Assembly: GCA_963718745.1 (NCBI GenBank)
Contig: OY970370.1
Location: forward strand, 1,488,001-1,552,000
Source of the DNA: Fermentibacter sp963718745 [NCBI: Candidatus Fermentibacterota bacterium]
GTDB lineage: Bacteria; Fermentibacterota; Fermentibacteria; Fermentibacterales
Direction of reading: 5' to 3'
DNA length: 64,000 nt
The notes beneath the pieces are model-generated. The model searched no databases, was not told the origin of the DNA, and saw nothing but the letters and a program-made list of their open reading frames with translations. The translations under genes were made by a program, and so were the position numbers. Positions 12,719-57,441 of this stretch are shown one piece after another. Position 1 is the first letter of the stretch, and each line of letters opens with the position of its first letter.

Positions 12719-12760
12719 CTGACCGGTACAGGCAGATCATCAGTGGAGGATGGTGGAAAA

Positions 12761-22360: not shown

Positions 22361-24166
22361 CTACTCTACTACCGCGAACCTGCCGGTCGCCGAGCTTATG
22401 CCGGACATCACCCTGCATACATAGACCCCCGGAGCCAGGTCGCTGACCGTGAACTGCGGACTGCCCGCTTCGAGGATCATCTCCATGGAGTCGTACACCC
22501 GCCTGCCGGAGATGTCGAATATGCAGAGCCGGACCTGGGCCTGCGCCTCCAGGCAGAGCCTGATGACCGCGACGCCGCATGCGGGATTCGGGCTTACAGG
22601 GAGGAGGGTCACACCGCTGCCTCCCGGTTCGCCTGGCGCCATACCCTGCTGGTTCCAGGTCACCCACACCTCGTCCAGATAGGGCTCCGCTCCGGGGGCG
22701 GATATGTCGAGGAGAGCTCGATACTGGAACAGGCTGTCCCCTGGCGCAAGAATCTGCGAGAGGCGGAGCGGAGCTTCGAAGGGTTCCGACCATTCGCCCA
22801 TCTGCAGGATGTCGTCCGATGCCCTCACCTGGAACACCAGCGAAGAGCCCGATGGGATCTCGGCGATGCAGTCGAGGACATCCCATTCCGGGGCCGCTCC
22901 GGTGTCCAGCACGCTGGACTCCAGGTAACCGGAGTTCTGGCGCCTGTCCCACCACGCAATCTCCGCCGCTCCCATTGCGGCGAAAACGGGATCTATCTCG
23001 CCGTCGCCATCCATGTCCGCTGCACAGACGGACATCGCACCGTCGAGAACAACGATCGAGTGACGTCTCCAGGACCCGTCGCTGTTCTCCCACCACACGA
23101 CCTCGTCGGCAACGGCGGCGGCCCCGACCAAGTCCATGTCGCCGTCGCTGTCGAAGTCACCGGGGACTATCGAGACAGCTCCGTCGAAGTCCGTGTCCAA
23201 TTCGTGTCCGGTCCAGCTTCCCGACCGCCCGTCCCACCAGCCGACCACGCCATCGATCGCGGCTGCGCCCAGGATGTCCATGCTCCCATCGCCGTCGATG
23301 TCGGCAGAGCTGGCGAAGTAGGCGCCATCGAAACCGGTTGCGATGTCCTCCATCGTCCAGGCGGTCCCTGTTCCATCGGTATTGTTCCACAAAGCGACGG
23401 CATCCAGGTAGTAGGCCGTTCCGATGACGTCCAGGTCGCCGTCCGAATCCATGTCGGATGCACTCACGGACCATGCACCATCGAAGGATTCGCCTATGGT
23501 GTGCCTGGTCCACTCGATGGCGGAACCGTCAATGTTCTCCCACCATGCGATCTCGTCGGAATAGGCGGCCGCTCCGAGGATATCAAGGTCGCCATCGCCG
23601 TCGACATCGCCCGTGCATACGGACCTCGCGCCGTCGAAGCCGCCGTCGATGACAAGGGCGGACCAGCTCTGTCCGAGTCCGTCCCCGTTCATCCACAGGG
23701 TGATGTCGAAAGCCTCGAACTGTGTCTTCGAGGCGCCCAGCACGTCGATGTCCCCGTCACCCTCGATGTCGGCGGCCCAGACTGAGCTCGCCCCCGTGAA
23801 CAGGGAATCGATGGAGTGCCTGTTCCACTCCGTGGCGGCCTCGTCGATCCTCTCCCACCAGGAGACCTCGCCGGTCTCCACCGAGGTGCCGACAAGGTCG
23901 ATATCGCCATCACCGTCGATGTCCGCCGGGAAGATGGAAGTCGCTCCGGCAAAGGTGTCGTCGACTACTATTGTGCTGGCCTGAAGACTGATGCCTATGA
24001 ACCCGGGCACTTCCGCATAATCGATGCCGGAACTGAGGTAGAAGGTGTTTCTGAACTGCATGACCGGTCCGGAGATCCCTGGGCCGCCAGACCAGTCCGC
24101 CTGCACAGCAACATCCCCACTCGGCGCAGATGCAATAACCATCAGTACAACGAGAATCCGGTACAT
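22361..24166 (-). CDS. Secreted FG-GAP/VCBS repeat protein with sorting tail
   Basis: 601 residues with a signal peptide (YRILVVLMVIASAPSG). Seven repeats of about 45 residues carry the calcium-binding DxDxDGxxD loop (DIDGDGDIDLVGT, DVDGDGDLDILGA, DMDSDGDLDVIGT and others) followed by WWEN and W-x-x-H-x-I: FG-GAP/VCBS blades of an integrin-like propeller. A beta-sandwich linker follows, and a FlgD-like tail starts near 525 (LLPVSPNPACGVA, LCIFDISGRRVYDS, GVYVCRVMSG). It is extracellular; calcium binding is likely, the ligand is unknown. GGAGG stands 6 bases upstream of the ATG. Confidence 0.82.
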   Translation of the reverse strand: MYRILVVLMVIASAPSGDVAVQADWSGGPGISGPVMQFRNTFYLSSGIDYAEVPGFIGISLQASTIVVDDTFAGATSIFPADIDGDGDIDLVGTSVETGEVSWWERIDEAATEWNRHSIDSLFTGASSVWAADIEGDGDIDVLGASKTQFEAFDITLWMNGDGLGQSWSALVIDGGFDGARSVCTGDVDGDGDLDILGAAAYSDEIAWWENIDGSAIEWTRHTIGESFDGAWSVSASDMDSDGDLDVIGTAYYLDAVALWNNTDGTGTAWTMEDIATGFDGAYFASSADIDGDGSMDILGAAAIDGVVGWWDGRSGSWTGHELDTDFDGAVSIVPGDFDSDGDMDLVGAAAVADEVVWWENSDGSWRRHSIVVLDGAMSVCAADMDGDGEIDPVFAAMGAAEIAWWDRRQNSGYLESSVLDTGAAPEWDVLDCIAEIPSGSSLVFQVRASDDILQMGEWSEPFEAPLRLSQILAPGDSLFQYRALLDISAPGAEPYLDEVWVTWNQQGMAPGEPGGSGVTLLPVSPNPACGVAVIRLCLEAQAQVRLCIFDISGRRVYDSMEMILEAGSPQFTVSDLAPGVYVCRVMSGISSATGRFAVVE

Positions 24167-24215: not shown

Positions 24216-24629
24216 TGGCATCGATTTCGGACCGCAGACCATCCTGTTCCTGGAGCGTCGACCAGGCACGACCCTGAGATGTGGTGCAGGAGGGGTGGCA
24301 AACCCGGGCATCTGACCGGCTGACACCGGATCCTCGTCATTTGTCTTCCGCCGATGCTCCCGGGGGGACCTCGGAAACAGCTCCAGGTCGGTGACATTCT
24401 CCAGGGTGACCGGATCAGCTGCATCTGGTGCAGGCTGTCAGGTAGTCCTGAGCGCCCGGGATTTGGTGATCCACGGCCACCCCTCACAGTCAGTGTGTTC
24501 CTGCGCCAATCGAGCGGAGCTACTTCACGAGGTCTTCCACGAAAGAATAAGTATTATCTCTAGAAGAGGCGATGGTTTCAGGAACTTCGAGAACTACAGA
24601 CTGAGAGTGCGAGCACTGTGCTGCTAAAC
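24216..24629. other. Gene-free stretch
   Basis: About 410 bases between the FG-GAP promoter and the tRNA-associated repeat array. No ORF with a ribosome binding site, RNA gene or strong hairpin was seen. Base composition falls towards the array on its right side (A/T-rich near 24530-24620). Confidence 0.5.
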
Positions 24630-24652
24630 TGGACCAGTGCCCCTGTTAATGG
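24630..24652 (+). repeat. Relic of a unit end (TGGACCAG...TTAATGG)
   Basis: TGGACCAGTGCCCC, two variable bases and TTAATGG. The same 23-base block closes units A (26656-26678) and C (35170-35192). Its presence to the left of unit A indicates a fourth unit, now lost or deleted. Confidence 0.6.
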
Positions 24653-24729
24653 TGTAGATCCTGCAGATCTACCTGATTGAGTGGTACACCGGCCTTTGGT
24701 CCAGTCGAACCAGCTCAGAGTCATCCTTC

Positions 24730-25014
24730 ATGCTGCGTATCCCCAGACCTGACATCAGGATAGCACAGCAGAAGACCCGCTGCTACCGCAACCCGGTCAT
24801 CTTCGCGATGGAGCTCCAGGCCGAGATGAGCACGGACCATCTGACAAGGCAGCAGCTCGCGGACAGGCACGGGATCTCCCTCGACCGGGTGATCCAGTGG
24901 CTAGCTCTGCTCAAGCTTCCCCAGGCACAGCTCGAGGAGATCAAGGTGCTGGGGGATCACTGGGAGCATCGGGTCGTGACGGAGCGGGAGCTGCGGAGAA
25001 GAAGATCCAACTGA
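24730..25014 (+). CDS. Small ParB-like helix-turn-helix ORF, unit A
   Basis: 94 residues. The core LTRQQLADRHGISLDRVIQWLALLKLP matches the ParB/KorB-type helix-turn-helix (T-x-x-x-L-A-x-x-x-G-I-S-x-x-x-V, then L-x-L-L-K-L-P), followed by a charged tail rich in Arg. Similar short HTH pieces accompany recombinase genes in other bacteria, which is established only loosely. No ribosome binding site precedes ATG 24730 or the internal ATG at MELQAEM, so expression is uncertain, yet the frame is kept in all three units with mostly conservative changes. Confidence 0.5.
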   Translation: MLRIPRPDIRIAQQKTRCYRNPVIFAMELQAEMSTDHLTRQQLADRHGISLDRVIQWLALLKLPQAQLEEIKVLGDHWEHRVVTERELRRRRSN

Positions 25015-25187
25015 CTCCGTGATGGAAGCCAGTCAACTCATTGATCTAGGACGGTATCTCTCCCAGTCGAAGAAACCAGTGCGGGTACTGTCTTCCCCTC
25101 TTCCTAGCTCCGGATCGTGTTTCGGATCAGAGGTTGCCTCGTCCGAGGCGGTGGGCTATCTCTTTGCATCATGACTGGAGGGTGTGA

Positions 25188-26465
25188 ATGAAGCCGTTGC
25201 TCGCACTCGCGCTCATCTTCTCCCTCTCCCATGCGGAAATCGAAGTGGCGGAGCTGTTCCGGGCCGAGACGCTGGAGGAGCTCGAAGCCGCCCTTGTCGA
25301 TGGCTACCCGATGCCGTGGCTGGCTGAAGTCCTCGCCGACTCCACAATCCCCGAGGATGACCGCTACTGGCTGGACTGCAGGATGAGGGCAGTCATCGCC
25401 CAGGACATGCACCTGTTCTTCGACAGAAATGGTGATCCAGTTCACGTTGAGGCTGAATGGATCGCACCCGGCGAAGACTACTGGCGTGAGAACTTCATGG
25501 TAAATGCAGATGGAGCCGAATCCCTGTACGACCGATCAGATCAGCCGACCAATGTAGTTTCTGAACCCGGTGTTCTGGTCGATCGCTTCGGAGAGGAGAT
25601 CGGCGAGCTTGCGATGATACACCGGGGGGTCAGGTTGAGCAGGGATGCCAGCATCGGTGTTACCCTATCCGGACGACACAACGAACCCGGCTGCCCGGTA
25701 ACAATGCCGCGCCTGTGTTTTGCCTGCCTTCTCTTCCCCGATGGTTCCTTCAGGGAAACGCAAATCGGTTACGCTGGGTACTCCAATTTCGCGATCAGCA
25801 ACGATGGTAGCCGGATCGTCGTTGAGACTGAAGTCCCTCGAGATTCGGATCTCGGAGAGGCGTACACCGGGTTGGTCTTCCTGCTCGATCGGGAAGGAAG
25901 CATCGTAGCCCGTTTCCCGATGGCGGACGGGATCATGGGTGGAGCGCCTGCTGTCTCGGCTACCGGCAGATACGTGGCGTGCAGACAGAACTCGATACCC
26001 GAAAGAGGGGTCTTCCTCCTCGATGGGGAAACTGGTCAACTCCTCTATCGATTCAGAGAAGACGTGGTCGGGCACGACTTAACGTTTTCTCCCAACGAAC
26101 AGTATCTGTGCATCGGAGGTCTCTATAGGCCAGTAGTCTTCGACTGTCTTGATCGTGAGGAGATATGGTCTGTTACCCCCTCCGATCTTGATGTTGACGA
26201 GCCTGTTCTTCGCCCTGGCTATTGTGCAGATGATGGGCAAACGTTTGTGTTCAGTTCACTACAAACTCACCCGATGCGTTTCGGTACGATGATCTTCAGA
26301 GGAGACAGTCGCCCTATTGAATGGGATTCTACTAGAGGGGTCATCCAGGTATCCCCTAACGGCGCTTGCACCTTCGCTCAGTGCTACGATGCGGTAGAGC
26401 CCAACTCCTGGAACGACTTCCTGTGCGTTCCAGTGATCGTGAACCAGCTCGAAGGTGGTGAGTAG
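25188..26465 (+). CDS. Exported protein with conserved N-domain and propeller-like body, unit A
   Basis: 425 residues; TGGAGGG lies 6 bases before ATG 25188. A signal peptide (KPLLALALIFSLSHA) is followed by a helical N-domain of about 90 residues (EVAELFRAETLEELEAALVDG..., YWLDCRMRAVIAQD) nearly identical in units B and C. After about residue 110 the chain becomes a WD40/YncE-like propeller (SRDASIGVTLSG, FAISNDGSRIVVETE, VFLLDGETGQLLYRF, LTFSPNEQYLCIGG) with little identity to the paralogs. It is periplasmic or surface exposed; function unknown. Composition is less GC-rich than outside the array. Confidence 0.68.
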   Translation: MKPLLALALIFSLSHAEIEVAELFRAETLEELEAALVDGYPMPWLAEVLADSTIPEDDRYWLDCRMRAVIAQDMHLFFDRNGDPVHVEAEWIAPGEDYWRENFMVNADGAESLYDRSDQPTNVVSEPGVLVDRFGEEIGELAMIHRGVRLSRDASIGVTLSGRHNEPGCPVTMPRLCFACLLFPDGSFRETQIGYAGYSNFAISNDGSRIVVETEVPRDSDLGEAYTGLVFLLDREGSIVARFPMADGIMGGAPAVSATGRYVACRQNSIPERGVFLLDGETGQLLYRFREDVVGHDLTFSPNEQYLCIGGLYRPVVFDCLDREEIWSVTPSDLDVDEPVLRPGYCADDGQTFVFSSLQTHPMRFGTMIFRGDSRPIEWDSTRGVIQVSPNGACTFAQCYDAVEPNSWNDFLCVPVIVNQLEGGE

Positions 26466-26468
26466 AGG

Positions 26469-26655
26469 ATGAAGACGACCATCATCGCTCTCGTTCTATG
26501 CGGAACTGCCTTCTGCATCCCCTGCCACTGGGTGCGACTCCCGATGCCCAGGACTCGACGCACACGATCATGCCCGTCTACGGCGATTAACACGCTCCAT
26601 TCGGAATCGACCTGACGGACAGACCCATCAGGTGTCGACGATCCGCTTGTCAGCT
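26469..26655 (+). pseudogene. Frameshifted remnant of the third module gene, unit A
   Basis: Starts 3 bases after the propeller stop with MKTTIIALVLCGTAFC, the same signal peptide as the remnant in unit C (34982), and by homology the start of a relative of the M23/FG-GAP gene in unit B. A one-base loss near 26523 compared with unit C breaks the frame; the nucleotide match continues through the THTIMHVYGDYH and FGIDLTD region to the unit-end block, where homology to the full-length gene stops. Confidence 0.65.
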
Positions 26656-26727
26656 TGGACCAGTGCCCCACTTAATGGCGGAGAACCAGAACCTAAATCC
26701 CTGTATGGCAACTATTTGTAAGGAATA

Positions 26728-27063
26728 ATGTGGTACACCGGCCTTTGCTCCAGTCGAACCAGCTCAGGGCCATCCTTCATACTGCGTATCCCGAGACCTG
26801 ACATCAGGATAGCCCCGCCCAGGACCCGTCTCTACCGCAACCCGGTCATCCTCTCGATGGAGCTCCAGGCCGAGATGAGTACGGACCAACTCACGAGGCA
26901 GCAGCTGGCCGATAGACACGGGATCTCCCTCGATCGTGTGATCCAGTGGCTGGCCCTGCTGAAGCTGCCCGAGACGAAGATCAAGGAGATCGTGGCGCTG
27001 GGAGACTACTGGGAGCGGCGTCTTGTGACGGAGAGGGAGCTGCGGAGAAAGAGAACCAACTGA
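26728..27063 (+). CDS. Small ParB-like helix-turn-helix ORF, unit B
   Basis: 111 residues if read from ATG 26728, which lies on the unit junction; the ATG used in units A and C is ATA here, so the next start is ATG 26857 (MELQAEM). The HTH core LTRQQLADRHGISLDRVIQWLALLKLP is identical to unit A; the tail differs conservatively (ETKIKEIVALGDYWERR). There is no Shine-Dalgarno before either start. It is possibly a relic of a DNA-binding partner of the element. Confidence 0.45.
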   Translation: MWYTGLCSSRTSSGPSFILRIPRPDIRIAPPRTRLYRNPVILSMELQAEMSTDQLTRQQLADRHGISLDRVIQWLALLKLPETKIKEIVALGDYWERRLVTERELRRKRTN

Positions 27064-27476
27064 CTCCGTGACGGAAGCCAGTCATCTCTTTGATGTAGGA
27101 CGGCATCTCTCCCAGTCGAAGAAACAAGACGTTTCCTTCGGATTGTTGCAGCACGAGCGCAAGTCTGTTTTATACCTGTCTTCGTATACGAAATTCACCA
27201 TCTCAGCACAGTTGGATGAAATGCGGAATTGGGAGTGCGTATCCTTCAGTGGCATGCCGCTTCTCTAGCCTTCCTGTGTGGTGTTGTAAATGTAGACAAG
27301 GTAAAATTTTATCTGGACTCTGCGACCGCGCTGGGTCAAAGACTCGAAGCAGTCTATCTTGCATGACGGCCCTTGACGCGGATACATGAGTGAATGAGCA
27401 TACCCCTGTCTTGTCTGACATGCTCGAAGGAGAGTGCGTGAGACGGCACGAAAACAGCATCATCCATGAAAGCGCC
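27064..27476. other. Unit-B-specific insertion without a gene
   Basis: In units A and C about 145-175 bases separate the HTH ORF from the propeller gene; in unit B it is 581. The extra part (about 27125-27476) has no counterpart, is distinctly A/T-richer and contains no credible ORF or inverted-repeat ends. The conserved leader resumes at about 27545 (TGTCTTCCCCTCTT). Confidence 0.55.
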
Positions 27477-27544
27477 TACCTACCTACCTACCTACCTACC
27501 TACCTACCTACCTACCTACCTACCTACCTACCTACCTACCTACC
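27477..27544 (+). repeat. (TACC)17 tetranucleotide microsatellite
   Basis: Seventeen perfect TACC units (68 bases), ending 100 bases before the unit B propeller start. The same place in unit A reads GTGCGGGTAC. The repeat is also inside a 60-codon frame, ATG 27466 to the TGA at 27646-27648, encoding MKAP then tandem TYLP; this frame overlaps the propeller start codon. A change of one unit would shift that frame. Whether the short frame is translated is unknown, as it has no clear ribosome binding site. Confidence 0.9.
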
Positions 27545-27644
27545 TGTCTTCCCCTCTTACTAGTTCCGGATCGTATCCAGCATCTGTGTTTGCCTCGAAG
27601 GAGGCCATGGGGTATCTCTGTACAGACGGACCTGGAGGGTATGA

Positions 27645-28964
27645 ATGAAAGCATTTCTCGCCCTGGCAGTTCTCTTCTCCCTCTCCCATGCAGACATCGA
27701 AGTGACGGAGCTGTTCCGGGCGGAGACGCCCGCCGAGCTCGAAGCTGCCCTTGTCGACGGCTACCCGATGCCATGGCTGGCTGAGGTCCTCGCAGACTCC
27801 ACCATCCCGGAGGAGGACCGCTACTGGCTGGACTGCCGGATGAGAGCGGCGATTGCCCGCGATCTCAACCTCTTCTTCGATCGGGACGGGAACCGTGTCG
27901 AGGTCGAGTGTGACTATATGCATCCGGGTGAGAGCTACTGGCGCGAGCACTTCATCGTGAATCCTCTCGGCGAGTCGTTCCGATACGACACTCAAGATCG
28001 CCCTGCTGACGTTCCATACCTGGAGATGGAGGCGCAGCCGGGGTACATCCTGAACTTGTACGGTGAACGAGTGGGAGACATCGCTATCACCCGCGACAGG
28101 GTGTGGCTGTCGCGGGACGCCTCGGTGGGGATCTTCAGGACTGGTAATACCGATGGAATCAGCTACAATCGTGCCTGCTTCCTGTACCCCGACGGATCGT
28201 TCCGGGAGCAGCCGATTGATCCGGTGTTCGTCCAGTACGCTCTGAGCCAGGACGGGAATGTAGCTGTATTCTGCTCAAGATCGCAACATGTGCCTGAAGA
28301 GAGAAACCAGGAGGAATGGGAGTGGATGGTGTATGCCTTCGACCATGAAGGCGATCTCATTTTCGAGAAACTCGCACCATATGATCCGCTATCTGGTTCG
28401 GCTACGCCAGCGATCTCGCCGGACAGCCGGTATATAGCTATCCCCTTCGGGACAGGCTCTGTCTGGTTGCTCGATGCTCGTACCGGAGATGTGATCCATA
28501 TGTGGGGTGGGACTCCTGAAAACATGGTTAGCGGGAGCAACCTCTACTTCACACAGGACAGCAGATACCTTTGTGCCGGTAGCGTGATGGTCTTCGACTG
28601 CGAGACAGGAGAACGGATTCTCAAGGTCGGCACAAGCGCGCCGTACACACAGACTTCCGAAGGCTTCCTAGAGAGAGGGCGCAACACTTGTATGGCCAGC
28701 AACGGAGCTAGGCTGGTTAGCAACATCTTCTGGACGAACTTCCGCCCAATCGAATTTGCCCCTTACATTTACACTTCGACTGTCGAGCTGCGGGACCAGA
28801 ATGCCAACCTGTTCTATTCGGAATCGTGCGACTGGCTGCCGTTCATGTCGCCGAACGGAGAATTCCTCTTAGGGGAGAAGTACAATTCCCTCTTCTTCGG
28901 AGGTTCTGGATCAGACGCTTCGTCCACTCCGCTTGCGATCATGCGCCTCCTGGAGGTGGAGTAA
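27645..28964 (+). CDS. Exported protein with conserved N-domain and propeller-like body, unit B
   Basis: 439 residues from ATG 27645, with GGAGGG 5 bases upstream. The signal peptide (KAFLALAVLFSLSHA) and N-domain (ADIEVTELFRAETPAELEAA..., YWLDCRMRAAIARDLNLFF) match units A and C; the body then diverges but keeps propeller-type strands (VGIFRTGNTDG, YALSQDGNVAVFCS, VWLLDARTGDVIHMWGG, YLCAGSVMVFDCETG). The stop overlaps the start of the 1,374-codon gene (TAATGA), so the two are translationally coupled and probably act together. Partner and ligand are unknown. Confidence 0.7.
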   Translation: MKAFLALAVLFSLSHADIEVTELFRAETPAELEAALVDGYPMPWLAEVLADSTIPEEDRYWLDCRMRAAIARDLNLFFDRDGNRVEVECDYMHPGESYWREHFIVNPLGESFRYDTQDRPADVPYLEMEAQPGYILNLYGERVGDIAITRDRVWLSRDASVGIFRTGNTDGISYNRACFLYPDGSFREQPIDPVFVQYALSQDGNVAVFCSRSQHVPEERNQEEWEWMVYAFDHEGDLIFEKLAPYDPLSGSATPAISPDSRYIAIPFGTGSVWLLDARTGDVIHMWGGTPENMVSGSNLYFTQDSRYLCAGSVMVFDCETGERILKVGTSAPYTQTSEGFLERGRNTCMASNGARLVSNIFWTNFRPIEFAPYIYTSTVELRDQNANLFYSESCDWLPFMSPNGEFLLGEKYNSLFFGGSGSDASSTPLAIMRLLEVE

Positions 28965-31900
28965 TGAAACTGTTCTATGCACTCACCACAGCGGCGCTGA
29001 TCTTCTCTGCTTCAGCCTTCGCCACTGATCCCGTGATTTGGCCGATGAGCCCTCAGGGAGGGACTCATACACTCTTCCACAGCTTTGGAGACTACCATAC
29101 GCCATGGATGAATGCATGTGCCGACTCAACGAATTTCCACTTCGGCATCGACCTCACCGATCCGACGCCCTCGGCTGTCGATGATGCTGCTGAAGCAGTC
29201 TATAGCGTGCGTACCGGATATGTGCGAGATGTGTTCTATCCCGAAGGAGTAACCCCTGATGCCCCGATGGCGCACGACAACTATGGGATCGTGATCTGCG
29301 ACGAGTACCAGCAGCAGACCGGTTTCGGCTGGTGCCTCCAGCACATTGAGGACTACCTGTACACCGGAGGGGGCTTGGAAAACAACCCCTGGTCGCCAGA
29401 CAGTATGTACACTAACAACTTCTTCGTTGAAACGGCACGTCTTGGCGACATCGACAACGATGCCTTCAGCCAGGGTGGCGCCACCTGGACTGACGATCAC
29501 CTGCACTTCATGAGAAGCGCCTACACATACAATCCCGCACATCCAGGATACCTAAACCCTCTCTTCTATCTCGACCCTGCGCCGGTCGAGGGCAGCAGTC
29601 CCTTCTTCGACTGGTCATGGGATAGCGGGACTGGAATTCCCTACGGGTTCTTCGTGATCCCTCAGTACTCGGCTCTTAACGACTGGGAAACCGAGTGGGC
29701 GACACCTGCTGCGTGCAAGAGCGAGATTGACTCATTCGAGAGCATAATCAGCGGAGCTGTCGATCTGGTTCTTTTGATGCATGTGGAAGGTGAAGGTGTA
29801 ACGGGAAGCACTCCTCCCTTCAGCTGCATGCCGCAGCGACTGGAGTGGTGGGTGGAGAGATGGGACGCATCCACGAACGCCTGGGTTGAGGTCGAGGACA
29901 TCAACGGAATCCCGTATCACAGATATCCTTTCGACTTCGGGGATATCGAGCTGGGAGGCTCCTCGGACTGGGAGCGGTACAAGCAGATCTATTTCAGGTT
30001 CGATGCTTTCGACTTTTTCAGTAGTGCCTCTGCAGGGAGCATGTGCTGCCTCACGAACTGCAGTGATAATGATTCTTGGGACGGTATAGAGAACATCGAG
30101 GAGAACTGGTGGCAGACCAACGTCGATAAGGAGCAGGTCGGACCGACGATTGTGGCGGAGGAGATGCTGTTTCCTGATGGGCAGTACAGGATTGCAATCA
30201 GGCCCTGGGTATTCAATGGAACGACACCAGTCGCACTGACTCCGGCCTATGCGCTTGTCGATCTTCACAACAGCAGCCCGGTCGCGCATGCGGCCGAGAT
30301 TCTGAGCCCTGCGAAGGGCACGATTTGGTCAGCGCACTGGGAGGCTGTGGAGGTCGTCGACGGTCTTGAGGTCGAGTTCGTCGTCCAGGAGGATGAGCCC
30401 GTAGAGGCAGGGCAGACGCTGGCAGCGACGATCGTGTTTTCGGAGCCGATGAACACCGCGTCGGGAAGCTATTCGATAACGGCTGGCAAGGCTCCGGATT
30501 ATGACGATCTGGAGGTCACGACTACGGGTTGGAGTTGCACTAACAACCCTGCACCGTACTACGATACCTGGTCAGGAACGATCGAGGTCCCCGAGACAGG
30601 GATATCGGGGAGGATCATCCTGCGTATCGAAGCAGAGGATACTGATGGCAACTGCTTGAAGGATCCCGCGGATGCCTTCCCGTCGGATGACGAGTATTCC
30701 GATCTCTACCATGGCTTCGGGATAGCGTTTGGTGCGGAGCCTGGGTGGAGTGCAACGCTCCACGGTGGAGTCTATGGTTCTCCGTGTCTTGGGGATCTCG
30801 ACGGCGATGGGGACCTGGACGTGGTTATCCAGAGCAAGGATGGGTGGATCAACTGCCTGGACGACACCGGGGCGCAGTTCAGCGGTTGGCCTCAGAATGG
30901 CGGCTGGGTGCCTTCTTGGACGAAGACATACAGCTCGGTTTCACTATCCGATCTGGATCAGGACGGATCACTCGAAATCCTTGCGACCAATCCCTATGGA
31001 TGCAGGGCATACGAACTGGACGGGACGTATACCAGCTATCTCAATTCGAACTACTCTCACTTCAGCAAGGCATCACCTGCTGTGGGCGACGTAGACGGTG
31101 ACGATTTGCTGGAAGTCGTGCTCGGCCGGGTGGATGACGGGCAGGGCTCGGCCATGCCGTCAGTAATCTGCCTGGAGAACGACCTTACATTGAAGTGGAC
31201 GAAGCTCTACTCGGGGCTGTTCGGAGAGATGCCGATACTGGCGACACCTGCTGTCGGTGACATCTCGAGCAGCCACACGGGTAACGAGATAGCAATTGCG
31301 ACAGGGCAGGATTTCATCGAGGGTTATCCTTACCTGGAGACTGACACGGGGTATCCCAACTGGGTCCGACTTCTCGACGGTTCGGGGAACACGCTCTGGA
31401 CGTCGGCGGACTACCTGTGCCAGTTCTGGGCGTCGCCGGTGGTGGGAGACATCGACGGGGACGAGATAAACGAGGTGGTAATAGGAAGCACCACCAACTG
31501 GGACGACGGGAAGAAGGTGTTCGTGCTTAACGGGAACACCGGGGCGCTTGAACACACATGGACCGTTGGCAACTGGGTACTGCATCCGGCGGCACTCGCC
31601 GATCTTGACGATGACGGCGTGCTTGATGTGATCGTGGCCTGCAACGACCACAAGGTGTACGCCTGGTCGGGCGACACTCATCAAGCCTTGTCAGGATATC
31701 CGGTGGATCTCGGATCACTAGTAGGAAGTCCTTCGGTGGCTGACATAGATGGCGACTTTGACCTTGAGGTTGTGGTAGGCACGTCGGCAGGAGAGCTTTG
31801 GGCGTTGAATCCAGATGGATCGACCTGCACAGGATTCCCGGTAGCTGATGGGACCTATTTCAGAGGGTCACCTGCGATGGGCGATCTGGATGGAGACGGG

Positions 31901-33088
31901 TGCCTGGAGGTTCTGATCGCCGACCAGACTGATGCAACCGCGTACTGCTACGACATGGGCTCGGGTTCGTTCCCGTGCGAGATGCCGTGGCGTCAGTTCC
32001 AGCATGATTCGTGGCACAGCGGGTGCTTCGAGGCGGATAACACGGTACCTGAGGCTCCGACGGATCTGGACGCGATAGTGACGTACAACGAGTACGGCTA
32101 CACAGCAGACCTGACATGGGACCTGTCGGTGAATGATCCGTACTCGCCCGATCCGGAGGATCCTGCGGATGTTGTCAGTTACCAGATCTACAGGGCGTTT
32201 CCTCCGAGTACGTACACGATCCTCAGCCGCAGTCATGCGGGTGAGGGATACTACACGGACGAGTGCCCCGACCCGCAGGGCACGGTGGTCAGATATGTGG
32301 TTACCGCCTCCGACGGGACGAACGAGTCGGAGTACAGCAACGAGGTGAGGTTCAGGACGGTGCCTGGGCTTAACCTCGCGGCCGGCTGCCATGTGACCGA
32401 GGAGCTGACCAGCGGAGTACGCACCAGTGTTGAGGTATCTGCTGGCTCGCACGGCATGGCGAGGATCAGTGATACCGGATCCATGTCGACGGCAGGTACT
32501 GCAACCGGAGCGAAGCTCCTCACGGACGGAGAGACGGAAGACGTCTACATCCCCGGTGCCGGTGTGCGGGCTGTCGTGATAGACCTGGGCTGCAGCTGCC
32601 TCATCGGGCAGGTTGATCTGATGGAGGCACGCGCTGAGGCGTCTGCCTCGATGGCCGATCCTTCGGTGATCGAGGTATCGGCCGACGGGACGGCCTGGGC
32701 GGCGCTGGGCGCGCAGAGGGCGACTGCCGGAACGGCGGGCAGATATGTCAGGATAAGCCCTGCGCCGATCACGTCCGAGGTCTTCGTCTGGGGTAACTGG
32801 ACAGCGGAAGAGGATGAAGAGTCAGTGATCGGCATGGAGAGGATCGATGGCCGCTGGAACCTCGAGATGCCCGTGCTTGACGATGCTTCCTCGGGAGAGA
32901 TCGGAACCTTGAGTTTGTATGACGTAACGGGTCGCGTTCTGAGGAGCTGGAGCGCCCGCCCGGGCGAGGAAGTGGACTGGGACGGCCGGACGGCATCAGG
33001 CATGCAGGTCACTCCCGGCTGCTACTTCGTTCGCTATGAGCAGGGCGGTGAAGCCGTCACGAGGAGGCTCCTGGTAACTGCGGAGTAG
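28964..33088 (+). CDS. Large secreted protein: M23-like peptidase, FG-GAP, FN3, discoidin-like and sorting domains
   Basis: 1,374 residues from ATG 28964 (signal peptide KLFYALTTAALIFSASAFA). Residues about 30-195 resemble an M23/LytM metallopeptidase: HFGID at 59-63, H127 (CLQHIED) and DDHLHF with H179 and H181, matching the HxxxD, H and HxH ligands, though spacing is loose. Eight FG-GAP repeats with DxDxDG calcium loops lie at about 620-1000, then an FN3-like domain (about 1035-1120), a F5/8-C-like sandwich (about 1180-1265) and a FlgD-like tail (LYDVTGRVLRSW, GCYFVRYEQGG). It is probably a surface-attached peptidoglycan or peptide hydrolase, but the enzymatic role is inference. Confidence 0.7.
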   Translation: MKLFYALTTAALIFSASAFATDPVIWPMSPQGGTHTLFHSFGDYHTPWMNACADSTNFHFGIDLTDPTPSAVDDAAEAVYSVRTGYVRDVFYPEGVTPDAPMAHDNYGIVICDEYQQQTGFGWCLQHIEDYLYTGGGLENNPWSPDSMYTNNFFVETARLGDIDNDAFSQGGATWTDDHLHFMRSAYTYNPAHPGYLNPLFYLDPAPVEGSSPFFDWSWDSGTGIPYGFFVIPQYSALNDWETEWATPAACKSEIDSFESIISGAVDLVLLMHVEGEGVTGSTPPFSCMPQRLEWWVERWDASTNAWVEVEDINGIPYHRYPFDFGDIELGGSSDWERYKQIYFRFDAFDFFSSASAGSMCCLTNCSDNDSWDGIENIEENWWQTNVDKEQVGPTIVAEEMLFPDGQYRIAIRPWVFNGTTPVALTPAYALVDLHNSSPVAHAAEILSPAKGTIWSAHWEAVEVVDGLEVEFVVQEDEPVEAGQTLAATIVFSEPMNTASGSYSITAGKAPDYDDLEVTTTGWSCTNNPAPYYDTWSGTIEVPETGISGRIILRIEAEDTDGNCLKDPADAFPSDDEYSDLYHGFGIAFGAEPGWSATLHGGVYGSPCLGDLDGDGDLDVVIQSKDGWINCLDDTGAQFSGWPQNGGWVPSWTKTYSSVSLSDLDQDGSLEILATNPYGCRAYELDGTYTSYLNSNYSHFSKASPAVGDVDGDDLLEVVLGRVDDGQGSAMPSVICLENDLTLKWTKLYSGLFGEMPILATPAVGDISSSHTGNEIAIATGQDFIEGYPYLETDTGYPNWVRLLDGSGNTLWTSADYLCQFWASPVVGDIDGDEINEVVIGSTTNWDDGKKVFVLNGNTGALEHTWTVGNWVLHPAALADLDDDGVLDVIVACNDHKVYAWSGDTHQALSGYPVDLGSLVGSPSVADIDGDFDLEVVVGTSAGELWALNPDGSTCTGFPVADGTYFRGSPAMGDLDGDGCLEVLIADQTDATAYCYDMGSGSFPCEMPWRQFQHDSWHSGCFEADNTVPEAPTDLDAIVTYNEYGYTADLTWDLSVNDPYSPDPEDPADVVSYQIYRAFPPSTYTILSRSHAGEGYYTDECPDPQGTVVRYVVTASDGTNESEYSNEVRFRTVPGLNLAAGCHVTEELTSGVRTSVEVSAGSHGMARISDTGSMSTAGTATGAKLLTDGETEDVYIPGAGVRAVVIDLGCSCLIGQVDLMEARAEASASMADPSVIEVSADGTAWAALGAQRATAGTAGRYVRISPAPITSEVFVWGNWTAEEDEESVIGMERIDGRWNLEMPVLDDASSGEIGTLSLYDVTGRVLRSWSARPGEEVDWDGRTASGMQVTPGCYFVRYEQGGEAVTRRLLVTAE

Positions 33089-33121
33089 AACAGACAGAAC
33101 GGGTGAAGACCCGCAATAACA

Positions 33122-33147
33122 GCCGGGCGGCCTTCGGGCCGCCCGGC
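33122..33147 (+). terminator. UUCG-loop hairpin after the large gene
   Basis: An 11-bp perfect stem, GCCGGGCGGCC and GGCCGCCCGGC, closed by TTCG, 33 bases after the stop. No T-run follows, so it may act as an mRNA 3'-end stabiliser or a weak terminator. Confidence 0.6.
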
Positions 33148-33304
33148 CTGCATCAGGGAAATCCCGGAGAGAAAGGCTCAGCACGAAAGCCGGCGTGTTC
33201 AGCCAAGGCAAGATCATTCTTACTGGCTGTCTGGCAACAACATATATATGATTTGCTGGTACACCGGCCTTTGGTCCAGTCGAACCAGCTCAGGGTCATC
33301 CTTC

Positions 33305-33619
33305 ATGCTGCGTATCCCGAGACCTGACATCAGGATAGCACAGCAGAAGACCCGCTGTTACCGCAATCCGGTCATCTTCGCGATGGAGCTCGAGGCCGAG
33401 ATGAGCACGGACCAACTGACCAGGCGGCAGCTCGCGGATCGACACGGGATCTCCCTCGACCGGCTGATCCAGTGGCTGGCTCTGCTGAAGCTGCCGACGG
33501 AACAGCTCGAGGAGATCGCCGCTCTGGGGGATTACTCGGGAAAGCCGGTGGTTACGGAGAGGGAGTTGAGGAGAAGAAGATCCAACCGTCTCCGTGATGG
33601 AAGCCAGTCAACTCATTGA
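33305..33619 (+). CDS. Small ParB-like helix-turn-helix ORF, unit C
   Basis: 104 residues from ATG 33305 (matching the unit A start). The HTH core is LTRRQLADRHGISLDRLIQWLALLKLP. The stop used in units A and B (TGACTCCG) is changed to CGTCTCCG, so the frame runs 16 codons further into the leader of the next gene. There is no ribosome binding site. The extended C-terminus is probably not functional. Confidence 0.45.
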   Translation: MLRIPRPDIRIAQQKTRCYRNPVIFAMELEAEMSTDQLTRRQLADRHGISLDRLIQWLALLKLPTEQLEEIAALGDYSGKPVVTERELRRRRSNRLRDGSQSTH

Positions 33620-33762
33620 TCTAGGACGGGATCTTTCCCAGTCGAAGAAACCAGTGCGGGTCCTGTCTTGCACTCTTCCTAGCTCCGGATCGTGTCCAGC
33701 ATCGTGATTGCCTCGACGGAGGCCATGGGGTATCTCTGTACAGACGGACCTGGAGGGTATGA

Positions 33763-34980
33763 ATGAAAGCATTTCTCGCCCTGGCAGTTCTCTTCTCCCT
33801 CTCCCATGCAGACATCGAAGTGACGGAGCTGTTCCGAGCGGAGACGCCCGCCGAGCTCGAAGCTGCACTCGTCGACGGCTACCCGATGCCGTGGCTGGCT
33901 GAGGTCCTCGCAGACCCCTCGATCCCCGAGGAGGACCGCTACTGGCTGGACTGCAGGATGAGGGCGGTCATCGCCCAGGACCTGCACCTGTTCTTCGACG
34001 AGGAAGGTAGTCCTGTACGGATTGATGCCGACTGGATCTGGCCTGGGGAGGACTACTGGCGTGAATGTTTCAGCATCAACAGGGACGGGGTTGATGACCC
34101 ATTCGATGTGTCAAATCAACCCACCGGCAATTGGGGAGGTCAGGGCTACGTATCTGACAGATACGGAAACAACCTCGGACCTCTCGCTATCTGTCCAATT
34201 CCGAGGTACAACTCATGCATGTCCCGCGACGGATCTGTATCGATCACGCTTAGCGGTATACAGGACAATAACTTCGGGCCCGGACTCATGAACCTGTGCT
34301 TTCTAGGGGAAGACGGCAGTTTCAGCGAATTCCAATTGCATGGATGGTTCACCAAGTATGCGATGAGTCAGAGTGGTAATCTGGTCGTTGCATCATGTTA
34401 CGACAGACGGCGTGAAGTGGCCAGAGACCAACGAATACACCGTATCCTTGTATTCGATGGAGAAGGAAGTCTCCTTTACGAACTGAACCAGCCTGACTCA
34501 CCGCACTTTGAACAGGGTTCGCCACTGATCTCGCCAGATGACCGATACATAGCGATTCCTTTCCGTGGATCAAGACCGATGGTTCTTCTCGACGCCGCTT
34601 CTGGAGAGGAGCTTCACGTATGGCCCGACATGCTGGGAGCGACCAAGCATTTCTCAGCCAATTCGAGGTATCTGAGCTTCTGCAACACATCATCGGGGAT
34701 GGTCGTGGATTGCATATCGGGTGAAGTCGTATGGAGAGGCTATGACGGGGTAAGAGAGATCTTTTCTTCCAATGACGGTCGACTCGTCTGCTGGATGGGA
34801 GAAGGTTCCTGGACCAACCTCGTGGATCTGGAAGAGGGTATCTCCATCGACAGCATCTGCCAGGGAAGACCGACTCTGTCTCCGAATGCGTTCTTCCTAA
34901 TCGCACAGAGAAGCGTGTCTGGCAGCCTGATCCCTGACGACCTCTCGTTCTTCGCCGCCCGCATCGAAGCAGGTGAGTAG
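33763..34980 (+). CDS. Exported protein with conserved N-domain and propeller-like body, unit C
   Basis: 405 residues from ATG 33763 with the same GGAGGG leader as unit B. The signal peptide and first 90 mature residues are almost identical to B (AFLALAVLFSLSHADIEV, ELEAALVDGYPMPWLAEVLA); the segment ...MRAVIAQDLHLFFD is closer to A, so the N-domain looks like a mosaic. The remainder is a divergent propeller (YAMSQSGNLVVASC, RILVFDGEGSLLYEL, YIAIPFRGSRPMVLLDAASGEELHVW, FSSNDGRLVCWMG). It is exported; function unknown. It is followed one base later by the start of the truncated third gene. Confidence 0.68.
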   Translation: MKAFLALAVLFSLSHADIEVTELFRAETPAELEAALVDGYPMPWLAEVLADPSIPEEDRYWLDCRMRAVIAQDLHLFFDEEGSPVRIDADWIWPGEDYWRECFSINRDGVDDPFDVSNQPTGNWGGQGYVSDRYGNNLGPLAICPIPRYNSCMSRDGSVSITLSGIQDNNFGPGLMNLCFLGEDGSFSEFQLHGWFTKYAMSQSGNLVVASCYDRRREVARDQRIHRILVFDGEGSLLYELNQPDSPHFEQGSPLISPDDRYIAIPFRGSRPMVLLDAASGEELHVWPDMLGATKHFSANSRYLSFCNTSSGMVVDCISGEVVWRGYDGVREIFSSNDGRLVCWMGEGSWTNLVDLEEGISIDSICQGRPTLSPNAFFLIAQRSVSGSLIPDDLSFFAARIEAGE

Positions 34981-34981
34981 G

Positions 34982-35169
34982 ATGAAGACGACCATCATCG
35001 CTCTCGCTCTATGCGGAACTGCCTTCTGCTTTCCCTGGCCGCTGGGTGCGTCTCCCGATGCCCAGGACTCTACGCACACGATCATGCACGTCTACGGCGA
35101 CTATCACACTCCATTCGGAATCGACCTGACGGACAGACCCATCGGGTGTCGACGATCCGCGTGTCAGCT
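34982..35169 (+). pseudogene. Truncated remnant of the third module gene, unit C
   Basis: ATG 34982 opens MKTTIIALALCGTAFC and continues THTIMHVYGDYHTPFGIDLTD, aligning with THTLFHSFGDYHTP and HFGIDLTD of the 1,374-residue protein. Homology stops at the first peptidase motif, and the frame then runs through the unit-end block into the tRNA sequence (stop at 35258-35260). It shares its breakpoint with the unit A remnant, so truncation came before duplication of A and C. Confidence 0.7.
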
Positions 35170-35238
35170 TGGACCAGTGCCCCAGTTAATGGCAAAGAAC
35201 CTAAATCCCTGTATGGCAACAAGTTGTAAGGAATTTTG

Positions 35239-35315
35239 TGGTACGCCCGCCAGGAGTTGAACCCGGAACCTTCTGGTCCGTAGCCAGACGCTCTATCCAG
35301 TTGAGCTACGGGCGC
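35239..35315 (-). tRNA. tRNA-Arg (anticodon ACG), CCA encoded
   Basis: A 77-base cloverleaf read leftward: acceptor GCGCCCG with CGGGCGT (one G-U), D stem GCTC/GAGC, anticodon stem TCTGG/CCAGA around CTACGGA (anticodon ACG), five-base variable loop, T stem CCGGG/CCTGG around TTCAACT, discriminator A and encoded CCA. Its 3' end (TGGTAC on the + strand) is repeated at the left end of units A, B and C. An ACG anticodon depends on A34-to-inosine editing by TadA, which is encoded at 43043. Confidence 0.95.
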
Positions 35316-37801: not shown

Positions 37802-39166
37802 ATGCGTGAAAAGCTCAGGAGCATGGTCTCGAAGGAGCCCGCCGACTTCGCGGACATCCGGTACGAGATCAGACGCCAGACCGTCGTCTCCTTCAGCGGC
37901 AGGGAGATCAAGCAGGTGAACGCAAGCGCCACGGACGGCTATGTCGTCAGGGCTCTTCGCGGTACCGGATTCTCCTCCGCGGTTGTCACGAAGGAGGAGG
38001 ACGTCCCCAGGGCGCTGAAGCTGTCCTGCGAGGGTGCATCCACGATGATGAAGTTCGGCGGCAAGAAGATAGAGCTTGCCCCCGTTCCCGTGATCGAGGA
38101 CGACGTGGAAGCGGTGCTCGATGTTGATCCGAGGAAGATCCCCATATCGCAGAAGATCTCCACCGCGAGGGCCTACAACGATCTGATGCTCTCCCAGCCG
38201 GGCATAGCGACGACCAATGTCGCCTATCACGAGGTCTGCCGCGAGAAGTTCTACGTCAACTCCGAGGGGACGGCCATACGCGAGGAGCTGGTGACGGTGG
38301 CCGTGGCTGGAGAGGTGATCGCCAGGAAGGGGGATCTCCTGCAGAACATCCGGGTCGCGGTCGGCGGCTCGAACGGGTGGAGGTCTCTCGAGGGCAGGGA
38401 GGAAGTCTTCCTCCAGAGGGCCGGCCTGGCCGGCCGGCTGCTCGATGCCGAGCCCGTGAAGGGCGGCACGTACGACGTGATCCTCAACCCGAGCATGGCG
38501 GGCGTCTTCACGCACGAGGCCTTCGGCCACTTCAGCGAAGCCGACATCATCGAGGACAATCCCTCCATGCGCGAGAGGATGGCGATCGGATCCGTCCTCG
38601 GGTCCAGGGCGGTCAGCATGGTCGCCGATTCCACCATGCCCTCCCAGCTCGGCTACTACAGGTACGACGACGAGGGTGTCGCCGTAAGGCGCGTGCAGCT
38701 CATCAAGGAAGGCGTCCTCACCGGCAGGCTCCATTCCAGGGCGACGGCCGCCGCGTTCGGCGAAGCCCCCACGGGGCACGACGTCGCGGAAGACTACAGG
38801 TACGAGCCCATCGTGAGGATGGGTACGATATTCATCGAGCCCGGAACCGTGAGCGTCGACGACCTGTTCGCCTCCCTGGGGAACGGGCTCTACCTCCTCG
38901 ATGCGAAGGGCGGGCAGACCAGCGGCGAGAACTTCACCTTCGGAGCGCAGTACGGCTTCGTCGTGGAAAACGGCAGGATCGGCCCCATGGTCAGGGACAT
39001 CAACATCATGGGCAACCTCTTCAGCACTCTCGGGAACATCAGGCAGGCCGCATCCGACTTCGAGCTGTCGGAGCGCGGCGGGTGCGGGAAGGGCCAGACC
39101 AACATCAAATCGAACTACGGCGGCCCGCATGTGCTCATCTCGGGCATGGTAGTGGGGGGTGTGTGA
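37802..39166 (+). CDS. tldD: TldD metalloprotease
   Basis: 454 residues, the normal length. The zinc motif HExxxH is HEAFGH at 238-243, in THEAFGHFSEADIIEDN, and the family C-terminal block GGQTSGENFTFGAQYGFVVENG is present. TldD is the catalytic half of the TldD/TldE heterodimer, which trims unfolded or leader-bearing peptides (microcin B17 and CcdA antitoxin are known substrates). The gene overlaps tldE by one base, so they are translated together. ATG 37802 lies 119 bases after the ABC-type gene. Confidence 0.92.
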   Translation: MREKLRSMVSKEPADFADIRYEIRRQTVVSFSGREIKQVNASATDGYVVRALRGTGFSSAVVTKEEDVPRALKLSCEGASTMMKFGGKKIELAPVPVIEDDVEAVLDVDPRKIPISQKISTARAYNDLMLSQPGIATTNVAYHEVCREKFYVNSEGTAIREELVTVAVAGEVIARKGDLLQNIRVAVGGSNGWRSLEGREEVFLQRAGLAGRLLDAEPVKGGTYDVILNPSMAGVFTHEAFGHFSEADIIEDNPSMRERMAIGSVLGSRAVSMVADSTMPSQLGYYRYDDEGVAVRRVQLIKEGVLTGRLHSRATAAAFGEAPTGHDVAEDYRYEPIVRMGTIFIEPGTVSVDDLFASLGNGLYLLDAKGGQTSGENFTFGAQYGFVVENGRIGPMVRDINIMGNLFSTLGNIRQAASDFELSERGGCGKGQTNIKSNYGGPHVLISGMVVGGV

Positions 39167-57299: not shown

Positions 57300-57441
57300 G
57301 CGCGAAAATTGTCACAATAACTGATGAAAATGTAGAATACACGTCCATGAACGCATTCTGGTTCTTCAATGGGTATTGACTTCGACGAGGTGTTGTGGGA
57401 GTTTTAACTTCTATCAATCTGCACACGGAAGGACGGAGACG

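What the first reader, a model, noticed from the sequence alone, without database searches (positions are those of the whole stretch)
24630..35315. Three tandem copies of a three-gene module sit against the 3' end of tRNA-Arg(ACG)
The bases TGGTAC that end the tRNA gene (35239-35244) also begin units A (24682), B (26731) and C (33257). At the right end of each unit CTGT(A/C)TGGCAAC stands exactly 30 bases before the TGGTAC of the next copy or of the tRNA. Base composition is lower than the flanks, and no integrase or transposase lies inside. This looks like repeated insertion or amplification at a tRNA attachment-like site by an element whose recombinase works in trans. The unit combines a ParB-like HTH ORF, a secreted variable propeller and an M23/FG-GAP surface protein. 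I know of no described element with this content.
Basis: partly seen in the sequence, partly recalled or inferred. Interest (0 to 1): 0.82.

Follow-up and report, generated by a model that had tools for sequence, protein, structure and literature searches.

The report
Split serine-integrase cassettes stacked at tRNA-Arg
In a little-known bacterial phylum, small gene cassettes pile up behind two tRNA genes, and each begins with the detached tail of a DNA-inserting enzyme whose own gene appears to be cut in two when it inserts, which would be a new way to build and vary a store of genes.

Summary
In detail: three units abut the 3' end of tRNA-Arg(ACG), and each stated junction and 30-base spacing checks out. 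The window belongs to Fermentibacterota. The unit-start ORF (ParB-like HTH) is found in 34 of 42 genomes of the phylum, often in tandem arrays; all 27 HTHs sharing a contig with tRNA-Arg(ACG) or tRNA-Asn(GTT) lie on its 3' side and read toward it. The likely recombinase is a large serine recombinase (LSR): in relatives, eight LSR ORFs sit at these two tRNAs and read into the tRNA, which encodes their last residues. The HTH lies in the same frame beyond the same core, and one 668-aa LSR-HTH frame spans a junction. So attP appears to lie inside an LSR-HTH gene that integration cuts, leaving the LSR at the tRNA and the HTH tail at the far end. Site geometry fits LSR rules, including a 5-bp shift of the outer motif between units and tRNA. 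The window's units keep the HTH tail but no LSR; units elsewhere carry about one gene each (secreted propellers, toxin-antitoxins). Not shown: that LSR-less units still move, and what the HTH does. The main rival is a stack of decayed insertions.

The parts
35239..35315 (-). tRNA-Arg(ACG), the attachment gene; shared core TGGTAC at 35239-35244, T-loop motif TGAA at 35258-35261
   Evidence: ARAGORN; core and motif position
24682..26730 (+). unit A
   Evidence: core to core
26731..33256 (+). unit B
   Evidence: core to core
33257..35238 (+). unit C, abuts the tRNA
   Evidence: core to tRNA
24682..24711 (+). attP-type left arm of A: core TGGTAC, predicted crossover dinucleotide AC at 24686-24687, outer motif CGAA at 24706-24709
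26731..26760 (+). attP-type left arm of B
33257..33286 (+). attP-type left arm of C
26701..26730 (+). right arm of A, 30 nt from CTGTATGGCAAC to the core
33227..33256 (+). right arm of B
35209..35238 (+). right arm of C, next to the tRNA
24682..25014 (+). HTH tail exon of A, open from the core
26731..27063 (+). HTH tail exon of B; no ATG within the unit before the HTH
33257..33619 (+). HTH tail exon of C
25188..26465 (+). cargo of A: secreted, possibly propeller protein, conserved start and variable remainder
27645..28964 (+). cargo of B: same family
33763..34980 (+). cargo of C: same family
28964..33088 (+). cargo of B: FG-GAP surface-type protein
26466..26687 (+). truncated start of a third gene, in A
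   Evidence: repeat families D4, D10
34979..35201 (+). truncated start of a third gene, in C
   Evidence: repeat families D4, D10

Best explanation
The units are LSR-less cassettes of a large-serine-recombinase (LSR) integration system which, as far as tested, is peculiar to Fermentibacterota. In complete elements the attachment site attP lies inside the recombinase gene, between the LSR body and a C-terminal ParB-type HTH. Integration into the 3' end of tRNA-Arg(ACG) or tRNA-Asn(GTT) cuts that gene: the LSR body stays beside the tRNA and takes its last 13-14 residues and its stop codon from the antisense tRNA; the HTH tail stays at the far end of the element, in frame but without its enzyme. 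Elements that keep the HTH end and cargo, but no LSR, stand head to tail behind the tRNA, whose 3' end is restored each time. The window shows three such units. Shown by sequence: site, order, orientation, arm geometry, reading frame, LSRs beside the tRNAs in relatives, one intact LSR-HTH frame across a junction. Inferred: that the circle makes LSR-HTH, that losing the HTH is a switch (it fixes the insertion or changes direction), and that an LSR acting in trans moves LSR-less units.
For: LSRs: 8 LSR ORFs in 7 genomes run into tRNA-Asn(GTT) (5) or tRNA-Arg(ACG) (3) and end in tRNA-encoded tails such as WRLDEDLNLRPSG and WHARRDSNPKPSGP; the 4 of these given to Pfam have Resolvase, Recombinase and Zn-ribbon domains. 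Fusion: L085:9151-11154 is one 668-aa frame with Resolvase, Recombinase and HTH_ParB (HTH E 1.1e-7, above cut-off), reading ..GFEQIGK|W.. at the core. Frame: 98 distinct HTHs, core found for 86, 78 of these in frame; stops between core and HTH in 4 of 86 in the TGG frame, 50 and 54 of 86 in the other two; an earlier, narrower pattern gave 48 of 51 in frame. 39 of 78 in-frame units have no ATG, GTG or TTG between core and HTH, and ATG is no commoner (18 of 78) than by shuffling (28%). Geometry: CG(A/C)A at +24 in 70 of 78 unit starts; TTCG between -16 and -20 at 9 of 59 tRNA junctions, each time at -18 (background 2%); the axis falls on the dinucleotide at positions 4-5 that units share with the tRNA; the same motif of the tRNA T-loop is at +19 in 64 of 64 tRNAs. 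PMC3783163 (passages) reports a 5-bp shift of the zinc-domain motif between attP and attB of a serine integrase. Place: 27 of 27 HTHs on 17 contigs lie 3' of the tRNA and point to it. Flux: contigs end within 2 kb of the 3' side at 20 of 34 tRNA-Arg loci and of the 5' side at 1 of 34 (p 5e-7); tRNA-Asn 8 and 2 of 30 (p 0.08); tRNA-Val control 4 and 5 of 30. Selection: dN/dS of HTH tails within genomes, median 0.19, none of 89 pairs at 1 or above.
Against: One intact LSR-HTH fusion only; a second LSR/HTH junction, L274, is out of frame. Most units, the window's among them, lack an LSR-type right arm: TTCG at -16 to -20 in 9 of 86 internal junctions; right arms are alike (>=60%) in 18 of 144 same-genome same-class pairs and 75 of 9056 pairs between genomes. 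So how such a unit would be cut out is unexplained. Of the 8 LSR loci, 5 have TTCG at -18 and 3 do not; an HTH is held further along the same contig for 4; of the other four contigs three end within 10-19 kb and one, G044:C11, holds 31 kb without an HTH. 8 of 86 cores are out of frame; 12 of 98 HTHs had no recognisable core. The window's genome is not held and no LSR lies in the window; G027, whose HTH matches best, has two LSR hits, at other tRNAs. Contig breaks may come from repeats rather than from variation between cells. Low dN/dS may date from before insertion. No circle and no empty allele of the same strain was seen.
Confidence: 0.75

Rival explanations
1. Fossil stack: each unit is the decayed remnant of a full LSR element. 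Successive integrations at the tRNA pushed older ones outward; deletions and insertion sequences removed LSR and most genes, leaving the HTH end and some cargo. LSR-less units are dead.
For: Right ends are mostly unlike each other and mostly not of LSR type; A and C end in a truncated gene; insertion-sequence-like ends lie at unit right ends; some HTH hits hold stops; in three genomes one cargo stretch is followed by different right ends.
Against: Most units are compact (38 closed units, median about 2.2 kb; 22 of 38 with a single ORF of >=70 aa besides the HTH); HTH tails are mostly open and under purifying selection; units recur nearly whole in another genome, such as L067 and L061; in 8 of 28 genomes, the window's included, right arms are shared.
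Confidence: 0.35
2. The HTH is an independent small gene (regulator or directionality factor) carried next to the left end; the LSR-HTH frame is an accident of one junction.
For: One intact fusion only; 39 of 78 units have some possible start codon before the HTH, ATG in 18; the HTH part resembles ParB/Noc.
Against: Frame kept across the core in 78 of 86 and stop-free in 82 of 86; no start codon in 39 of 78; LSR tails at tRNAs use the same frame.
Confidence: 0.1
3. Plain tandem duplication by homologous recombination, without site-specific recombination.
For: In the window the three cargo genes are paralogues (45-47% identity to A over the alignment), and A and C share their right ends (92% over 170 nt).
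Against: Arrays elsewhere hold unrelated cargo behind the same start; starts follow the tRNA of their genome; two unlinked tRNA genes are used in one orientation.
Confidence: 0.04

Closest known systems
SSV-type ('suicidal') tyrosine integrases of archaea
   Same: attP inside the integrase gene; integration splits the gene into parts that flank the element; later excision depends on an intact enzyme (PMC8371274, passages).
   Different: Here a serine recombinase in bacteria; the catalytic part stays whole and only a C-terminal HTH is exchanged for a tRNA-encoded tail. PMC8371274 says self-disrupting integrases are found exclusively in archaea.
Staphylococcal and enterococcal cassette chromosomes (CcrA/CcrB)
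   Same: LSRs insert variable elements at the 3' end of a conserved gene, rlmH (PMC6222049, passages). Tandem composites and elements without ccr are recalled, not looked up.
   Different: tRNA target, units of about 2 kb, recombinase gene cut by the site, unit starts that carry its tail.
Integron cassette arrays
   Same: Many small, often single-gene cassettes behind a fixed site, without a recombinase of their own, with toxin-antitoxin cargo (integron side recalled).
   Different: Relatives carry a serine recombinase at the site; the cassette start is a coding exon of that enzyme; no attC-type site was looked for.
Genomic islands in tRNA genes
   Same: The target's end is rebuilt by the insert (abstract of PMC4383910, seen in the listing).
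   Different: That abstract names tyrosine integrases; here LSRs, with tandem LSR-less units.

Membership tests
LSR integrative element | Resolvase, Recombinase and Zn-ribbon enzyme at the end of the element | tested here: met
   In relatives: 8 LSR ORFs at tRNA-Arg/Asn, domains in 4 of 4 scanned. Not in the window.
LSR integrative element | attP and attB share a short core; outer motif 5 bp further from the centre in attP | tested here: met
   +24 in 70 of 78 unit starts, +19 in 64 of 64 tRNAs; rule from PMC3783163.
LSR integrative element | Two attP-type arms, one at each end (window units) | tested here: not met
   Left arms yes; right arms 26701, 33227 and 35209 are of another type. The window's units are therefore filed as LSR-less relatives, not complete elements.
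LSR integrative element | attP x attB recombination by the enzyme | not testable with these tools
   Needs an assay.
SSV-type suicidal integrase | Tyrosine recombinase | tested here: not met
   Serine recombinase domains. It works like one; it is not a member.
SSV-type suicidal integrase | attP inside the integrase gene, split by integration | tested here: met
   one intact junction frame and 8 tRNA-tailed LSRs.
Integron | IntI-type tyrosine recombinase beside attI | not tested
   No scan for tyrosine recombinases was run on the arrays; LSRs lie beside the tRNA in relatives.
Integron | attC sites that fold and recombine as single strands | not tested
   The ends fit LSR arms.
Cassette chromosome (SCC/ECC) | Insertion at the 3' end of rlmH | tested here: not met
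   Targets are tRNA genes.

The most novel reading that the evidence does not exclude
A bacterial gene-capture system in which the recombinase's C-terminal domain is part of the cassette: each insertion changes the tail of the LSR (tRNA-encoded, or an HTH from the next cassette), so the array both stores genes and reprograms the enzyme that builds it, with LSR-less cassettes moved in trans and tRNA-Arg and tRNA-Asn as fixed loading sites.
Probability: 0.3. Interest if true: 0.93.

Novelty: new variant of a known kind. Interest (0 to 1): 0.82.

Why it matters
Integrases that cut their own gene are described, in the review I saw, only for archaeal tyrosine enzymes (PMC8371274, passages). A bacterial serine enzyme that loses a DNA-binding tail when it integrates would offer a one-protein way of setting direction, where serine integrases otherwise need a separate directionality factor, and would make that question directly testable. 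The phylum also provides a natural series of LSRs with predicted attP and attB pairs and crossover bases at tRNA genes, and a tRNA-anchored store of secreted-protein and toxin-antitoxin cassettes in a lineage known mostly from metagenomes.

Tried and rejected
Tyrosine recombinase: my first reading of the inverted arms (note) was a tyrosine-type site; dropped when the ORFs at the tRNA proved to be serine recombinases.

tRNA-like RNA: unit starts look like a tRNA T-arm with five extra bases (note); the 5-bp attP/attB shift explains it. No RNA search was run.

GTGCCCC.GTTAATGG.GTAGA.CC as a unit end: it follows what looks like the C-terminus of a transposase (NYRLRVRALCC*) and is more likely an insertion-sequence end. 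The family name (ISL3) is recalled; one search translated another frame and did not test it.

Direct searches with the HTH alignment found no relative in genome contigs or viral contigs; relatives were reached through TldD. LSR-HTH elsewhere: in the 15 rows shown of 39 plasmid and of 280 phage records, no match reaches the HTH (query end at most 538 of 654); 2 of 6 genomes outside the phylum match, in the LSR part only. HTH model at E<=1e-3: 1 of 149 genomes in the phylum of an Elusimicrobiales genome, 2 of 147 in that of a WOR-3 genome, best E 2e-5.

Structure: the propeller model was too poor to search. The HTH tail model (pLDDT 64) gave ParB/Noc as top matches, best E 0.012, none below 0.001; the HTH of L085 matches ParB and Noc chains by sequence, best E 2e-4. 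The window's own HTH ORFs stay below the HTH_ParB cut-off.

Literature: nine searches listed no serine integrase split by its own attP and nothing of this kind in Fermentibacterota; listings are capped and the library holds open papers only. Passages only were seen of PMC8371274, PMC12884075, PMC6222049, PMC10083194, PMC3783163, PMC6002521 and PMC4158269.
Full report
Observation. The four TGGTAC positions and three 30-nt spacings are exact. Unit starts B and C are 83% and 89% identical to A over 300 nt. GC is 0.56-0.57 in the units and 0.64 in the flanks.

Origin. The window's genome is not held. Its TldD (37802-39163) is up to 66% identical to Candidatus Aegiribacteria and other Fermentibacteria genomes, so the window is placed in Fermentibacterota, of which 42 genomes were searched.

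Spread. A model of the three HTH ORFs hits 34 of 42 genomes at E<=1e-6, often in rows; contig G008:C18 (16.4 kb) has eight HTHs. Outside the phylum it hits 1 of 149 and 2 of 147 genomes of two other phyla, weakly. All 27 HTHs (24, 3 of the window) that share a contig with tRNA-Arg(ACG) or tRNA-Asn(GTT) lie on its 3' side and point at it, on 17 contigs. The other 117 of 144 lie on contigs without such a tRNA.

Unit starts copy the tRNA. The first six bases equal those of one of the genome's two tRNA 3' ends in 56 of 74 units. Of the 18 misses 16 are in genomes where the counterpart tRNA was not held, and 2 are true differences; 4 more units had no tRNA to compare. Several genomes whose tRNA-Arg ends TGGCACGCCCG have units that start TGGCACGCC; G027, whose tRNA-Asn ends TGGCTCCCCG, has a unit that starts so. 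Exceptions exist (L081, and L118 by eye).

The recombinase. In relatives a large serine recombinase lies beside the tRNA and its frame runs into the tRNA. The Recombinase domain is found in 20 of 42 genomes. Of the 30 loci given with that search, 16 have an LSR frame overlapping a tRNA: 8 at tRNA-Asn(GTT) or Arg(ACG), 8 at Glu, Ser, Arg(TCT) or Arg(CCT). At Asn and Arg the tail is tRNA-encoded and the stop lies opposite the anticodon loop (my reading). G027, the genome with the best HTH match to the window, has two LSR hits, both at other tRNAs.

The HTH is the tail. From unit starts TGG is a codon of an open frame into the HTH: 78 of 86 cores in frame, stops in 4 of 86 against 50 and 54 in the other frames. 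Half of the in-frame units (39 of 78) have no possible start codon in between. In G007 the frame is whole: L085:9151-11154, 668 aa, Resolvase, Recombinase and HTH_ParB. A second such junction, L274, is out of frame. Some unit right ends still encode the LSR's last residues, as GFEQIGK in L123. HTH tails are under purifying selection within genomes: median dN/dS 0.19, maximum 0.55, 89 pairs; the window's three pairs 0.20-0.24.

Site geometry. Unit starts have CG(A/C)A at +24 in 70 of 78. Of 59 tRNA junctions 9 have TTCG between -16 and -20, all at -18; of 86 internal junctions 9 have it, 7 at -18; background 2%. The axis between the motifs is the dinucleotide at positions 4-5: AC for Arg, GC or TC for Asn. 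L123 shows a whole imperfect palindrome of 50 bp. In the tRNA the motif is at +19 in 64 of 64, so in units it is 5 bp further out, as described between attB and attP of a serine integrase (PMC3783163, passages). This explains why unit starts look like a tRNA end with five bases too many.

Flux. Contigs end within 2 kb on the 3' side at 20 of 34 tRNA-Arg loci and on the 5' side at 1; tRNA-Asn 8 and 2 of 30, not significant alone (p 0.08); tRNA-Val 4 and 5 of 30. Arg plus Asn against Val on the 3' side: 28 of 64 and 4 of 30, p 0.005. Six of the 64 stop at the last base of the tRNA, none of the 30. Assemblies branch there, as expected if cells differ in what follows the tRNA; repeats alone could do the same.

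Cargo. 38 closed units are 1.0-6.5 kb, median about 2.2 kb; 22 of 38 have one ORF of >=70 aa besides the HTH (mechanical ORFs). Of 57 proteins scanned, 17 match a type IX secretion tail, 6 a PQQ propeller, 2 AbiEii, 2 Fic, 2 mobile mystery protein B, 1 mobile mystery protein A, 2 an MqsA-type antitoxin, 1 an IS3 transposase. Nearly whole units recur in another genome, such as L067 (G010) and L061 (G008), 74% over 2.2 kb. G027 has a unit 74-78% identical to unit A in two blocks.

Unsettled. Most units lack an LSR-type right arm. In 8 of 28 genomes some right arm is shared, the window's among them; 14 of 59 tRNA junctions have a terminator-like hairpin there, which may serve the tRNA. One consistent scheme is that these are attB-side arms, so that the tRNA junction stays a usable attB; it is untested. 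In G007 the LSR at tRNA-Asn and the next HTH along the contig are about 29 kb apart, that HTH being fused to a second LSR.

Verdict. A real, repeated arrangement with a plausible enzyme and a well-fitting site. The split LSR-HTH gene is the surprising part. Whether the window's own units still move is open.

Noticed in passing
window 24560-24662, 26656-26688, 35170-35202: Probable insertion-sequence remnant: peptide NYRLRVRALCC* before unit A and a repeated end TGGACCAGTGCCCC..TTAATGG; the motif recurs in arrays of other genomes. Family recalled, not searched.
   Followed up: partly
window 27475-27546: Run of about 17 CCTA copies in unit B between HTH tail and cargo gene, which could vary in length.
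   Followed up: no
L249, L254, L257, L259, L261, L268, L269, L273: Other LSRs of the phylum read into Glu, Ser, Arg(TCT) and Arg(CCT) tRNAs; whether they too leave a tail exon at the far end was not examined.
   Followed up: no
L204, 7395-8105 with the tRNA first: A second serine-recombinase-like ORF (VGYVRVSTDEQ..) in the flank behind an LSR-occupied tRNA-Arg.
   Followed up: no
L112 6430-6493: An array contig of G033 ends in the first ~20 bases of a tRNA-Arg 3' end followed by other sequence.
   Followed up: no
L109 6400-7450: In G044 an HTH unit lies about 0.7 kb behind tRNA-Leu(CAA) in the same orientation; possibly a third target tRNA.
   Followed up: no
window 12743-14434, 15827-17035, 22361-24166, 57376-59529: Further propeller (SBBP), RCC1, FG-GAP and C25 peptidase proteins, three with C-terminal secretion or FlgD-type domains, outside the array.
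   Followed up: no
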